From the IMG/VR virus record IMGVR_UViG_3300021376_005272, positions 1 through 30,923 of that record: 30,923 nucleotides of DNA; one strand, 5' to 3'. The notes under the pieces are model-generated. The model worked only from the letters and a program-made list of their open reading frames with translations. It ran no database searches and was not told the origin of the DNA. The stretch is from a virus. The position numbers were made by a program, and so were the translations under genes. Below, one piece after another: positions 8,940 to 20,372 of this stretch; the stretch's first letter is position 1, and every line of letters starts with the position of its first letter.

Positions 8940-9119
8940 ATGATAATAGTAAATATAAATGGCTCAGTTGAACATGCTTTGAAGCAATATAAAAATAAAC
9001 ATAATAAAATAGGAATAATAAAAGAATTAAGAGATAGAAAGACCTTTATTAAACCTTCAGTTAAACGTAGAACTGAAATTTTAAAGGCTCGATACGTAGA
9101 GTCTAAAAAAATAAAATGA
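8940..9119 (+). CDS. rpsU: Ribosomal protein bS21, phage-encoded
   Basis: The 59-residue product matches bS21 throughout: MIIVNINGSVEHALKQYK at the start, then GIIKELRDRKTFIKPS (24-40) and KRRTEILKARY (42-52), with the strongly basic composition expected. bS21 binds the 30S platform near the anti-Shine-Dalgarno region and influences initiation. Phage copies are known and are thought to be incorporated into host ribosomes. The start is 3 bases after the previous stop and the stop overlaps the next ATG (ATGA). A 59-aa gene is easily missed by length cut-offs. Confidence 0.9.
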   Translation: MIIVNINGSVEHALKQYKNKHNKIGIIKELRDRKTFIKPSVKRRTEILKARYVESKKIK

Positions 9120-12552: not shown

Positions 12553-12990
12553 ATGACAGCACTTTTTCGTGCGTTCGAGCTCGATCCGTTTGACTTGCTA
12601 TGGAAAGACCTAAAAGAAGCACAAGCACATTTTTCTGCAATTACGCAGAGAGTAACCCATCCTGTTGATATTTTCGAAACTAAAAGCGGTATTCGTTTTG
12701 AAATAGCCGCAGTAGGCCTTAGTGTCGAGGATATTCTTATTTCTGTTGAGAATGATTCTCTTAGAATTTGTTACGATAAACCTGCACAACAGGAAGAAAA
12801 TCATCCAATTTATAAGGGTATTAAGAGATCAAGTTTTGATCTTACTTGGAAAATTTCAACTAAGTTCGACTTAAGTAACCTTGAAGCATCTCTCGATAAA
12901 GGTCTTTTGACTTTAAATATACCAATTGCTGTAGGTAAAGCTACTCGAAAAATTTCTATTACTACACCTAAAGCTTTTCTTGAGAATTAA
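12553..12990 (+). CDS. Small heat shock protein Hsp20
   Basis: An alpha-crystallin domain is evident: PVDIFETKSGIRFEIAAVG (about 37-55), LSVEDILISVENDSLRI, SSFDLTWKISTKFDLSNLEASLDKGLLTLNIPI and an IxI-type tail (KISI, about 135-138). The length of 145 aa is usual. Hsp20 proteins are ATP-independent holdases; phage copies are known in cyanophages and T4-like phages. It opens the chaperone block and is the only gene between the two arms of a perfect 14-bp inverted repeat, which may regulate or punctuate its message. Confidence 0.94.
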   Translation: MTALFRAFELDPFDLLWKDLKEAQAHFSAITQRVTHPVDIFETKSGIRFEIAAVGLSVEDILISVENDSLRICYDKPAQQEENHPIYKGIKRSSFDLTWKISTKFDLSNLEASLDKGLLTLNIPIAVGKATRKISITTPKAFLEN

Positions 12991-12997
12991 ATAAGTA

Positions 12998-13011
12998 GCC
13001 TACTAAGTACC
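12998..13011. repeat. Right arm of 14-bp inverted repeat enclosing hsp20
   Basis: GCCTACTAAGTACC is the exact reverse complement of 12482-12495. It begins 8 bases after the hsp20 stop and ends 4 bases before the next ATG, where a paired RNA would block initiation of the 13016 gene. Confidence 0.75.
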
Positions 13012-13015
13012 AGTT

Positions 13016-13204
13016 ATGTTTACACTTACTAAGCAGTTTATTCCATTTAATAGCAAACTCTTTTTAATTAAAAAAATTATTAAGGAAGATGATTTTCCCG
13101 TAATAGAAGTCTGGAAAGAGTATCTTCAGGCCGATACAATATTAAAGAAAGAAGGATTACTTTATTTTTTAGTAACAGTTGAAGATTTGGAGATTATTTC
13201 TTAA
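13016..13204 (+). CDS. Hypothetical protein, 62 aa
   Basis: A small basic/hydrophobic protein (MFTLTKQFIPFNSKLFLIKK..., VIEVWKEYLQADTILKKEG) with a probable beta-alpha-beta layout and an acidic end. No family recognised. It lies between hsp20 and groES, with its start only 4 bases from the inverted-repeat arm. Confidence 0.6.
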   Translation: MFTLTKQFIPFNSKLFLIKKIIKEDDFPVIEVWKEYLQADTILKKEGLLYFLVTVEDLEIIS

Positions 13205-13224
13205 ATTAAATTAAAATAAAAAGT

Positions 13225-13596
13225 ATGTCGAAGTTACAACCGTTAAATGGGTATTTAATTTTAAGACCTATAGAAGAAGAGGAACAAATGTATGGTAATA
13301 TTGTTATTCCAGATTTAGGAAAAGAGAGGCCTGAGATGGGAGAAGTGATTGCTGTCTCTGCTACGTATAATTTTAATTCTGATAAACTAGTACTTTCAAA
13401 TCTTGAATTAGGAGACAAAGTTCTTATCCCTAAACTAGGTTCTCTAAGAATCACTGTAGAAAGCGAAGAATATTTTATTTGCAAAGAGCAAGACGTCTAC
13501 GCAAAATTAAGCGGACAATTAAGTGTTTTATCAGTTCTTAAAGAGACAGTAGTTGATCCTGATTTTGAAAAATACAACAACAGTAAAGTATCATAA
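13225..13596 (+). CDS. groES: Co-chaperonin GroES
   Basis: LQPLNGYLILRPIEEEEQMYGNIVIPD (4-30) matches the GroES N-terminus and mobile loop. The IVI triplet is the part that docks on GroEL. EMGEVIAV, GDKVLIPKLG and EEYFICKEQDVYA complete the beta-barrel. At 123 aa it exceeds the usual about 95, with an insertion (about 50-62) and about 25 residues after the barrel, somewhat recalling enlarged phage co-chaperonins such as T4 gp31. An A-rich leader precedes the start. groEL begins one base after its stop. Confidence 0.94.
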   Translation: MSKLQPLNGYLILRPIEEEEQMYGNIVIPDLGKERPEMGEVIAVSATYNFNSDKLVLSNLELGDKVLIPKLGSLRITVESEEYFICKEQDVYAKLSGQLSVLSVLKETVVDPDFEKYNNSKVS

Positions 13597-13597
13597 A

Positions 13598-15220
13598 ATG
13601 ACAACAACAGTATTTGGAATTGAATTAAAAAATAAGTTACTTGCGGGTATTAAAAAATTAAATGAATCGGTAACTTCCACTTTAGGGCCAGGAGGCCGTA
13701 CAGTGTTAATTAAAGAAAAATCTGGCGAAGTAAAAGTAACTAAAGACGGAGTTACAGTAGCTCGTTCCTTTCACGAACTTGAAGACCAGGTTGAAGACCT
13801 TGGTGCCCAGCTAGTAAAGCAGGTATCCATAAAGTCTGCTAATGAAGCAGGAGACGGAACTACTACCTCTACTCTTCTTGCTACAACAATGGTTGAAGAA
13901 GGATTAAAGCTTATTAATCAAGGATCTAACCCAGTAGAGGTTAAGAAAGCTATTGAGGTTTACGTAAAAGAAGTTATCGATAACTTAAAAAAAATATCGA
14001 AAGATATTTCCTCTCAAGATCAAATTCGTCAAGTAGCAGCTATCTCTGCAAATAACGATATTGAGATAGGCAATCTAATATCAGCTGCTATTGAAAAAGT
14101 AGGAAGAGAAGGTATTGTTACTATTGAAGAATCTAAAACAGGTGAAACTGCTTTGGAGATAGTAGAAGGTATGCAGTTTGATAGAGGATACAAATCCCCA
14201 TACTTCGTTACTAATAATACTACAATGCATGCAGTCTTGAATGAACCTTATATTCTTATTTACGATGGCCGTATCACTAAAGCTGCTGATATTTTAAATT
14301 CGTTAACTAAAGCCAACTCCGATCAAAAAGCTTTACTAATAGTAGCTGAAGATATAGAAGACGAAGCGCTTGCTACTTTGATAGTAAATAAAATGCGCGG
14401 TATAGTTTATGTAGCAGGAGTAAAAGCTCCTGACTTTGGGGAACGCCGTACTTTAATCTTAGAAGATCTAGCTATTTTAACCGGGGGACAGGTAATTTCT
14501 AAAAATAAAGGACATAAACTAGAGAAAATAACCCCGTTACAGTTAACGGAATTTTTCGGAGTCGCAAGAACTGTTACGGTATCTAAAGAAACCACTACTA
14601 TAGTTGATGGCAAAGGTAATATAGATGCTATAAGCTTAAGAGCTGAAGAGATAAAAGATCAAATTGAAAAAGCTACATCATTTTATGAGAAAGAAAAGCT
14701 TCAGGAGAGGCTTGGTAAATTAGTTGGCGGAGTAGCTATTATTTCAGTAGGAGGAAATTCCGATATTGAGATTAAAGAAAAGAAAGATAGGGTAGAAGAT
14801 GCTTTGTTTGCTACTAAAGCAGCTCTAGTAGAAGGCGTAGTTCCTGGTGGAGGACTTGCATTAATTACAGCATTCGAAAATATTAAATTACCTTTAACAT
14901 CAAGCGATGAGCAAAAAGGTTGGAATATAGTTAAAAGAGCTTGTCATGCTCCTTTCAAAGTAATTTTAACAAACTGTGGTATTGAAGATCACTACCGTAT
15001 TTTAAGTGAAATTAAGAATTATGAAAGTCAAGAATCAGCTCACACTTATGATGCTAAAAATCAAAAAGTAGTAGAGGCAACTGAAGCAGGTCTTCTTGAT
15101 CCGACTAAAGTCACACGTACTGCTCTTGAAAATGCTGCCTCCGTAGCAGGTACTATACTAACAACAGAATCAGTAATTTTCGAAAAAAAAGACGATAAGA
15201 AAAAAGATGAAGAAATTTAA
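13598..15220 (+). CDS. groEL: Chaperonin GroEL, full length
   Basis: 540 aa with all family landmarks: [12 protein letters not shown] near the start, the nucleotide loop [11 protein letters not shown], the apical-domain [15 protein letters not shown] and [25 protein letters not shown], which contains the catalytic ATPase Asp. The start at 13598 gives [11 protein letters not shown], one base after groES; the longer frame from 13553 overlaps groES and adds an unlikely leader. The C-terminus ends in a Lys/Asp/Glu-rich stretch (DDKKKDEEI) rather than the usual GGM repeats. With GroES and Hsp20 it provides a phage-specific folding system. Confidence 0.97.
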
Positions 15221-17722: not shown

Positions 17723-17801
17723 AAAGATTTCATCTAATAATCAGCCGCTAAGGCTACGCAGGATCAATATCTTTTGCTTTATAGTTAGTTCTTTATAATA
17801 T

Positions 17802-18209
17802 GGGGGAGTCCAGGTATTGCTCCGTAATGTGAAGGTAATACTACATGCAGGCGTTTGGATATGTCGCCTTTAAACAAATTTTCAAACAATAAATGACGAA
17901 ATGTCAACAATGACCTATGATGACCTAGTGGCATTTGTAGGTGCTGAAGAGTACGCATACGCGGCTTAGTAAGCTTGGGGCAGCTGATAGCCTCGCAACA
18001 GAACAGCAGCGAGTCGTACGCTATAGAGACGGCATCCGGACGCATATTGCGAGCCGTGAGTTTCCTAGTTTAGAGTAAAATTAGGTGGTGGAAGGCACGC
18101 TAACCAAAACTAGTGGCCCCAACTACTGATCAGCTTGCAGATCTAAGCATGTGATACGCTGGTGTTATTGTTCCTTATGGATACACGGGTTCGATTCCCG
18201 TCTCCTCCA
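17802..18209 (+). ncRNA. ssrA: tmRNA (transfer-messenger RNA)
   Basis: The 5' GGGGGAG (17802-17808) pairs with CTCCTCC (18202-18208) as the acceptor stem, with discriminator A18209. ACGGG-TTCGATT-CCCGT (18185-18201) is a perfect T-arm. Upstream of the tag, GGCG/CGCC (17850-17853, 17865-17868) and TTTG pairing to CAAA (about 17883-17886) outline pseudoknot PK1. The tag frame 17940-17969 reads G-A-E-E-Y-A-Y-A-A-stop, followed by tandem TAA, ending in the AA needed for ClpXP-type proteolysis. Helices expected for PK2-PK4 follow the tag. CTA rather than CCA follows the discriminator, so CCA would be added. No protein gene belongs in this stretch. Confidence 0.94.
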
Positions 18210-18231
18210 CTATTTATAGATGTAAAAGAGT

Positions 18232-20118: not shown

Positions 20119-20191
20119 TGACTATTAGCTCAGAAGGTTAGAGCAAGCCCTAAATCAGGCCGTGCCACTGGTTCGATTCCAGTATAGTCAC
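20119..20191 (+). tRNA. tRNA-like gene, anticodon unassignable
   Basis: TGACTAT pairs with ATAGTCA (20184-20190), the D stem is GCTC/GAGC and the T-arm is ACTGG-TTCGATT-CCAGT. The interior (20145-20166) does not fold into a 5-bp stem with a 7-nt loop and T33; GCC/GGC gives only 3 bp around an eight-base loop CTAAATCA. It is a close paralogue of the next tRNA, and one acceptor pair differs in a compensated way (A:T versus C:G), so selection on the fold is suggested. It may be an odd decoder, a decaying copy, or carry a sequence error. Confidence 0.6.
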
Positions 20192-20198
20192 CTTATAC

Positions 20199-20273: not shown

Positions 20274-20372
20274 GAACAGGGTGGCGAAAAAGAGCGGGCA
20301 TATGACCGCCGAAGGTTAGACGTAGACGAAAGTCTGCCGCAAGGCGTGAAGGTTCGATTCCTTCCCCTGTTC
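20274..20372 (+). ncRNA. tRNA-like RNA with abnormal interior, about 99 nt
   Basis: GAACAGGG (20274-20281) pairs with CCCTGTTC (20365-20372), an eight-pair acceptor-like helix. GAAGG-TTCGATT-CCTTC is a standard T-arm, and GCC-GCAA-GGC (20336-20345) looks like a type II variable arm. No normal anticodon arm is present: AGAC-GAAA-GTCT (20324-20335) is a tetraloop hairpin, and GCGG...CCGC (20294-20309) is an extra hairpin with an eight-base loop. It is not a readable Leu, Ser, Sec or His tRNA. It may be a rearranged or inserted tRNA or a non-decoding mimic. Confidence 0.5.

What the first reader, a model, noticed from the sequence alone, without database searches (positions are those of the whole stretch)
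17802..18209. Phage-encoded tmRNA with a GAEEYAYAA tag
Acceptor stem, T-arm, PK1 and a tag with tandem stops are all present, so the gene looks functional. tmRNA is rare in phages. With bS21, the Smr-like protein and tRNAs it suggests phage control of ribosome rescue. The tag differs from the common ALAA ending, which might change protease choice.
Basis: partly seen in the sequence, partly recalled or inferred. Interest (0 to 1): 0.72.

Follow-up and report, generated by a model that had tools for sequence, protein, structure and literature searches.

The report
Phage tmRNA with long conserved tag
This virus of (probably) Bacteroidota bacteria carries its own working-looking copy of the RNA that rescues stuck ribosomes, and the peptide it would attach to unfinished proteins is 24 residues long rather than the 8-9 first read, with a core that about 130 related viral sequences share and that host-type copies lack.

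Summary
The tmRNA gene is real: ARAGORN and Rfam both find it at 17802-18209, with a 7-bp acceptor stem carrying G3-U70, a T-arm, PK1 and tandem stops. The reading frame does not begin at GAEEYAYAA (or ARAGORN's AEEYAYAA) but 7 nt after PK1, at GAC 17895, giving DEMSTMTYDDLVAFVGAEEYAYAA** (24 aa). Evidence: host-type Bacteroidota tmRNAs resume at the same RNA position; A at -4 is invariant; ARAGORN itself calls the long tag in most relatives; variation is codon-structured; N-terminal indels are whole codons. About 130 viral contigs share the core S-T-M/W-T-F/Y-D/E-D-x-M-A/S-F-V-G-A, followed by a variable degron (DYAVAA, DYALAA, EYAYAA, DEATFA). The core is the best-conserved part of the RNA. 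One core pattern was absent from 84,980 bacterial/archaeal species genomes; tag queries found nothing in isolate phages or plasmids. Host-type tags are 9 aa (GENNYALAA). None of 66 phage records searched encodes SmpB. Best reading: a phage tmRNA that rescues ribosomes with host factors and adds a long, phage-specific tag, probably changing the fate of tagged proteins. New variant of a known kind.

The parts
17802..18209 (+). tmRNA (ssrA) gene, one-piece, up to discriminator A; CTA instead of CCA follows at 18210-18212
   Evidence: ARAGORN, Rfam RF00023 56.2 bits
17802..17808 (+). acceptor stem, 5' strand GGGGGAG (G3 of the G3-U70 alanine identity pair)
18202..18208 (+). acceptor stem, 3' strand CTCCTCC (U70), followed by A73 at 18209
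18185..18201 (+). T-arm ACGGG-TTCGATT-CCCGT
17849..17887 (+). PK1: stem 1 AGGC 17849-17852 / GCCT 17866-17869; stem 2 GTTTGGA 17853-17859 / TTCAAAC 17881-17887
   Evidence: pseudoknot possible in 44 of 53 distinct relatives' regions
17888..17894 (+). frame-setting spacer AATAAAT with A at -4 of the resume codon
   Evidence: A at -4 in 35/35 distinct relatives at the fixed position; A86 rule in PMC2481249
17895..17966 (+). tag reading frame DEMSTMTYDDLVAFVGAEEYAYAA (24 codons), resume codon GAC
17904..17945 (+). conserved tag core STMTYDDLVAFVGA
   Evidence: most conserved segment of the RNA, mean pairwise identity 0.81
17946..17966 (+). variable C-terminal degron EEYAYAA
   Evidence: varies among relatives
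17967..17972 (+). tandem stops TAG TAA
8946..9095 (+). bS21 gene (matched part); context only
   Evidence: PF01165 47.2 bits

Best explanation
A functional phage tmRNA that is charged with alanine, pairs with host SmpB and EF-Tu, enters ribosomes stalled on cut or unfinished mRNAs, and adds Ala plus a 24-residue tag, DEMSTMTYDDLVAFVGAEEYAYAA, to the nascent chain. The tag has two parts: a conserved phage-specific core (STMTF[D/E]DLMAFVGA in the family) and a short variable degron (EEYAYAA here). Shown by sequence: the RNA fold, the alanine identity pair, the resume site, and selection on the encoded peptide. Inferred: ribosome rescue in infected cells, use of host SmpB, and degradation by a host AAA+ protease. 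Most likely role of the core (about 50%): recognition by a particular host protease or adaptor, so that the phage sets the fate of tagged proteins, much as the long Mesoplasma tag is matched to Lon.
For: tmRNA; covarying acceptor and T-stems with G3-U70 in 117/118; PK1. Tag start: resume codon at RNA position 94, versus 95-97 in host-type Bacteroidota tmRNAs, aligned with their GGC; -4 A invariant; ARAGORN gives the long tag in most relatives. Peptide selection: pN/pS 0.25 in frame against 1.6 and 2.3 in the other frames on polymerase-anchored loci; whole-codon N-terminal indels; core identity 0.81 versus 0.43-0.72 elsewhere in the RNA. DEMSTMT[F/Y]DD absent from 84,980 species genomes. No SmpB in 66 records.
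Against: No RNA or peptide has been observed. Host unknown. Codons 1-4 and 7 of the tag vary little even at third positions, so part of the constraint there may be on RNA. No protease, adaptor or partner is identified; no phage SspB, no constant neighbour gene. One close relative (L009, 91% polymerase identity) uses an unrelated 26-aa tag on nearly the same RNA, so the core is not indispensable.
Confidence: 0.85

Rival explanations
1. Ordinary phage tmRNA with a short tag (AEEYAYAA or GAEEYAYAA); the sequence between PK1 and the tag is an RNA spacer or hairpin.
For: ARAGORN calls AEEYAYAA here; TAGGT|GCT has U at -5 and A at -4; TGACGAAATGTCA at the tag start could form a small hairpin (sequence).
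Against: Its -4 base is not conserved (GTT/ATT codons in relatives); the start would lie 55 nt after PK1 instead of 7; relatives are called with the long tag; variation upstream is codon-structured in the same frame and indels are whole codons.
Confidence: 0.06
2. The long tag is simply a longer unstructured handle: the extra residues help an AAA+ protease grip folded proteins, and the core has no specific partner.
For: Long ssrA tags exist elsewhere (Mesoplasma, PMC9382460); L009 has a 26-aa tag of unrelated sequence, of similar length.
Against: A plain spacer would not keep S, T, D, F and G at fixed places in 90 distinct tmRNAs whose RNA has diverged to 43% identity in PK2-4.
Confidence: 0.25
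3. The core is an effector peptide: tagged fragments bind and alter a host target (protease, membrane or ribosome exit tunnel) rather than only being destroyed.
For: The core is better conserved than the degron's variable positions and one relative (L124) has lost the hydrophobic AA end.
Against: No target known; nearly all tags keep a degron-like ending.
Confidence: 0.2
4. A decaying or inhibitory tmRNA copy that titrates SmpB, like the stub in mycobacteriophage DS6A.
For: DS6A precedent (PMC4131195); the Rfam score is modest (56 bits).
Against: All parts are intact, with compensatory changes in stems and purifying selection on the tag. Exons that would join cleanly are kept around a group I intron in L106.
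Confidence: 0.03

Closest known systems
Bacterial tmRNA/SsrA (Rfam RF00023), Bacteroidota form with tag GENNYALAA / GETNYALAA
   Same: One-piece gene, G3-U70 acceptor, T-arm, PK1, resume codon at the same RNA position, A at -4
   Different: Tag 24 aa instead of 9; resume codon GAC (Asp) instead of GGC (Gly); a conserved internal core; RNA only about 44-54% identical in the tRNA-like domain; carried by a phage
Known phage tmRNAs (mycobacteriophage Bxz1 group, Bacillus phage G, Melnitz/pelagiphages; PMC4131195, PMC9004378)
   Same: Complete tmRNA gene on a phage genome, here also without a phage SmpB
   Different: Melnitz type is two-piece and riboswitch-linked; no DNA similarity to any isolate phage; tag core not found in isolate phages
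Mesoplasma florum long ssrA tag, read by Lon (PMC9382460)
   Same: Tag much longer than usual, matched to a protease other than ClpXP
   Different: Cellular, unrelated sequence, ends NYAFA; protease matching known there, not here
Group I introns in the tmRNA T-loop (PMC11915505)
   Same: Relative L106 (and L096) carry such an intron (RF00028, 96 bits); the window gene has none
   Different: On a phage genome; insertion between loop bases 2 and 3, which by my reading of the paper's numbering is its position 3, reported there only from Bacteroidia

Membership tests
tmRNA (ssrA) | Match to the tmRNA covariance model above the gathering score | tested here: met
   RF00023 56.2 bits vs 47
tmRNA (ssrA) | tRNA-like domain with 7-bp acceptor, G3-U70 and T-arm | tested here: met
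   Sequence and covariation in 118 family loci; G3-U70 in 117
tmRNA (ssrA) | PK1 shortly upstream of the resume codon | tested here: met
   PK1 17849-17887, 7-nt spacer
tmRNA (ssrA) | A at -4 of the resume codon | tested here: met
   35 of 35 distinct relatives
tmRNA (ssrA) | Translated tag frame ending in a stop | tested here: met
   24 codons then TAG TAA; coding pattern among relatives
tmRNA (ssrA) | Alanylation, SmpB binding and tagging activity | not testable with these tools
   Needs experiment
Bacteroidota host-type tmRNA tag (GENNYALAA) | 9-aa tag starting with Gly and ending NYALAA | tested here: not met
   Tag is DEMSTMTYDDLVAFVGAEEYAYAA; host-type tags
Two-piece (permuted) phage tmRNA of Melnitz type | Permuted gene order | tested here: not met
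   One-piece, collinear match to RF00023 positions 1-374
SspB-type adaptor system | Phage-encoded SspB | tested here: not met
   PF04386: 0 of 40 records

The most novel reading that the evidence does not exclude
A widespread family of Bacteroidota-phage tmRNAs reprograms trans-translation: a conserved phage-only tag core redirects proteins from stalled ribosomes to a chosen host protease, adaptor or other target, which the host's own 9-aa tag does not use.
Probability: 0.4. Interest if true: 0.8.

Novelty: new variant of a known kind. Interest (0 to 1): 0.62.

Why it matters
Phage tmRNAs are listed in surveys, but I found no report of what their tags do. This family gives a clear, testable handle: a peptide more conserved than the RNA that carries it, present in about 130 viral contigs and not seen in bacterial genomes with the pattern tested. 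It could show which protease or adaptor phages use in Bacteroidota. It also warns that tag starts called by ARAGORN, or by eye, can be wrong.

Tried and rejected
Short-tag reading (reader and ARAGORN): rejected on resume position, -4 base and codon pattern. Core kept for RNA structure alone: rejected because third codon positions vary and N-terminal indels are whole codons, although codons 1-4 and 7 vary little and may carry some RNA constraint. Antisense ORF 17785-18045: an antisense ORF family overlaps the tag in only 12 of 81 loci. Linked phage partner gene: no gene family lies near the tmRNA in more than 28 of 81 loci. Phage SspB: 0 of 40; phage ClpP in 8 of 40. PDB sequence match to the tag: none. 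Amphipathic helix in the core: moment not above shuffles (fraction 0.27). In one search the A at -3/-4 was imposed by my search rule, and a few resume codons there are mis-set; only the fixed-position count is independent. Sequences gathered by amino-acid patterns bias pN/pS downward, so one search used loci found without the tag.

Full report
OBSERVATION. ARAGORN finds a tmRNA at 17802-18210 with tag AEEYAYAA**; Rfam RF00023 matches 17802-18212 with 56.2 bits against a gathering score of 47, E=1e-19. The acceptor stem is GGGGGAG/CTCCTCC with the G3-U70 pair and discriminator A; the T-arm is ACGGG-TTCGATT-CCCGT; CTA instead of CCA follows. The surroundings are phage-like: DNA polymerase A, GroES/GroEL, Hsp20, queuosine-type genes, glycosyltransferases, in a virus record of IMG/VR. 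The polymerase's nearest isolate is Flavobacterium phage immuto at 55% identity, so a Bacteroidota host is likely but not shown.

THE TAG WAS READ TOO LATE. The frame of GAEEYAYAA is open upstream to a point 7 nt after PK1: AATAAAT|GAC GAA ATG TCA ACA ATG ACC TAT GAT GAC CTA GTG GCA TTT GTA GGT GCT GAA GAG TAC GCA TAC GCG GCT TAG TAA, i.e. DEMSTMTYDDLVAFVGAEEYAYAA. GAC is base 94 of the RNA. Host-type Bacteroidota tmRNAs lying in (pro)phage contigs have their resume codon at 95-97 and tags GENNYALAA, GETNYALAA, GESNYALAA, GEENYALAA; MAFFT aligns their GGC with our GAC. In E. coli the resume codon lies 11-12 nt after PK1 and A86 (-4) is the key frame signal (PMC2481249). Here -4 is A in 35 of 35 distinct sequences at the fixed position. 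The -4 base of ARAGORN's start is not conserved: some relatives have GTT or ATT codons there, which put U at -4.

RELATIVES. A degenerate pattern for DEMSTMT[F/Y]DD finds 46 viral contigs and none in 84,980 bacterial/archaeal species genomes. In all about 130 viral contigs. ARAGORN itself calls the long tag (DEMSTMTFDDLMAFVGADYAVAA and similar) in most of those it detects. N-termini differ by whole codons: DEMST, D-VELST, DN-VELST, A-EELSS, VELST, D-NELST. The C-terminal degron varies: DYAVAA, DYALAA, EYAYAA, DLAVAA, EYAVAA, DEATFA. tblastn of two tags against 50,697 isolate phages and of one against 72,556 plasmids found nothing.

SELECTION ON THE PEPTIDE. Patterns that fix amino acids bias such tests, so I used tmRNAs found through the polymerase gene and Rfam only: nine distinct cores give pN/pS 0.25 in the tag frame against 1.6 and 2.3 in the other two frames; third codon positions are more variable (permutation p=0.0005). 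Over 90 distinct tmRNAs the tag core is the best conserved part of the RNA: mean pairwise identity 0.81, against 0.60 and 0.72 in the two halves of the tRNA-like domain, 0.54 in PK1 and 0.43 in PK2-4. That comparison does use pattern-gathered sequences, so part of the core's lead is by construction; the polymerase-anchored set shows the same motif independently, in all but one tmRNA type (L009).

SELECTION ON THE RNA. In 118 family loci with a complete tRNA-like domain, acceptor pairs 4-7 and T-stem pairs 1-4 switch between standard pairs, and G3-U70 is present in 117. PK1 can form in 44 of 53 distinct 5' regions, mostly with a 7-12 nt spacer; shuffled sequences reach the same score in 57 of 1060 trials. 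L106 (and L096, cut by the stored stretch) has a group I intron (RF00028, 96 bits) inside the T-loop, with exons that would join to the L107 sequence. These are signs of a working RNA.

MECHANISM. SmpB is absent from 66 related phage records, so host SmpB is presumably used. Alanylation, entry into stalled ribosomes and template switching follow from established tmRNA biology (inferred). The tag would end in a small hydrophobic A[V/L/Y]AA, the kind of end read by ClpX-type proteases (inferred). The function of the core is open. No phage SspB and no constant neighbour gene were found, which points to a host partner. The long Mesoplasma florum tag, read by Lon (PMC9382460), is the best functional analogue for a long tag matched to another protease. 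I put about 50% on protease/adaptor choice, 25% on a mere extended grip, 20% on an effector role.

LIMITS. No expression data. Host not identified. The viral records are mostly fragments, so absence of SmpB or SspB is not proven for any one phage. Phage tmRNAs as such are known: 402 of 18,146 phages (PMC9004378), and 79 unique sequences in the 2025 database, which used RefSeq viruses (PMC11915505). Text searches for the tag strings found no relevant paper.

Noticed in passing
L106:5655-5878 and the 3' end of L096: Group I intron inside the T-loop of a phage tmRNA; exons would join to the intact T-arm seen in L107.
   Followed up: partly
L009:9420-9811: Nearly the same tmRNA backbone as the window but an unrelated tag, ATREKRIAEGGAILASLFSEKYAVAA; a scan for its end found only this contig. 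Looks like a tag swap.
   Followed up: partly
L124:4160: Tag ends early, DEMSTMTFDDLMAFVGADYE*, without the usual hydrophobic AA end.
   Followed up: no
window 20119-20192: tRNA with an apparent 8-nt anticodon loop (ARAGORN 'aaat'; Rfam 40.6 bits); L009 has a similar one, 'aaaa'.
   Followed up: no
window 20275-20372: Degenerate tRNA-like element with a long extra arm, 23.8 bits, below the Rfam cut-off of 29.
   Followed up: no
window 17789-17801 and the same place in relatives: A TTCTTT motif, boxA-like, lies within 30 nt upstream of the tmRNA in 58 of 118 loci; others have a TATATTTACAT promoter-like sequence there.
   Followed up: no
window 8946-9095; 1350-1556; 12553-15220: bS21, a weak Smr-like ORF with LDLHG, and Hsp20, GroES and GroEL genes: a protein-quality-control neighbourhood.
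   Followed up: partly
records G022, G037, G039, G042, G111, G118, G122, G124: ClpP-family (PF00574) proteins in 8 of 40 records searched, nearly all tmRNA-bearing; could be head proteases or true ClpP.
   Followed up: no
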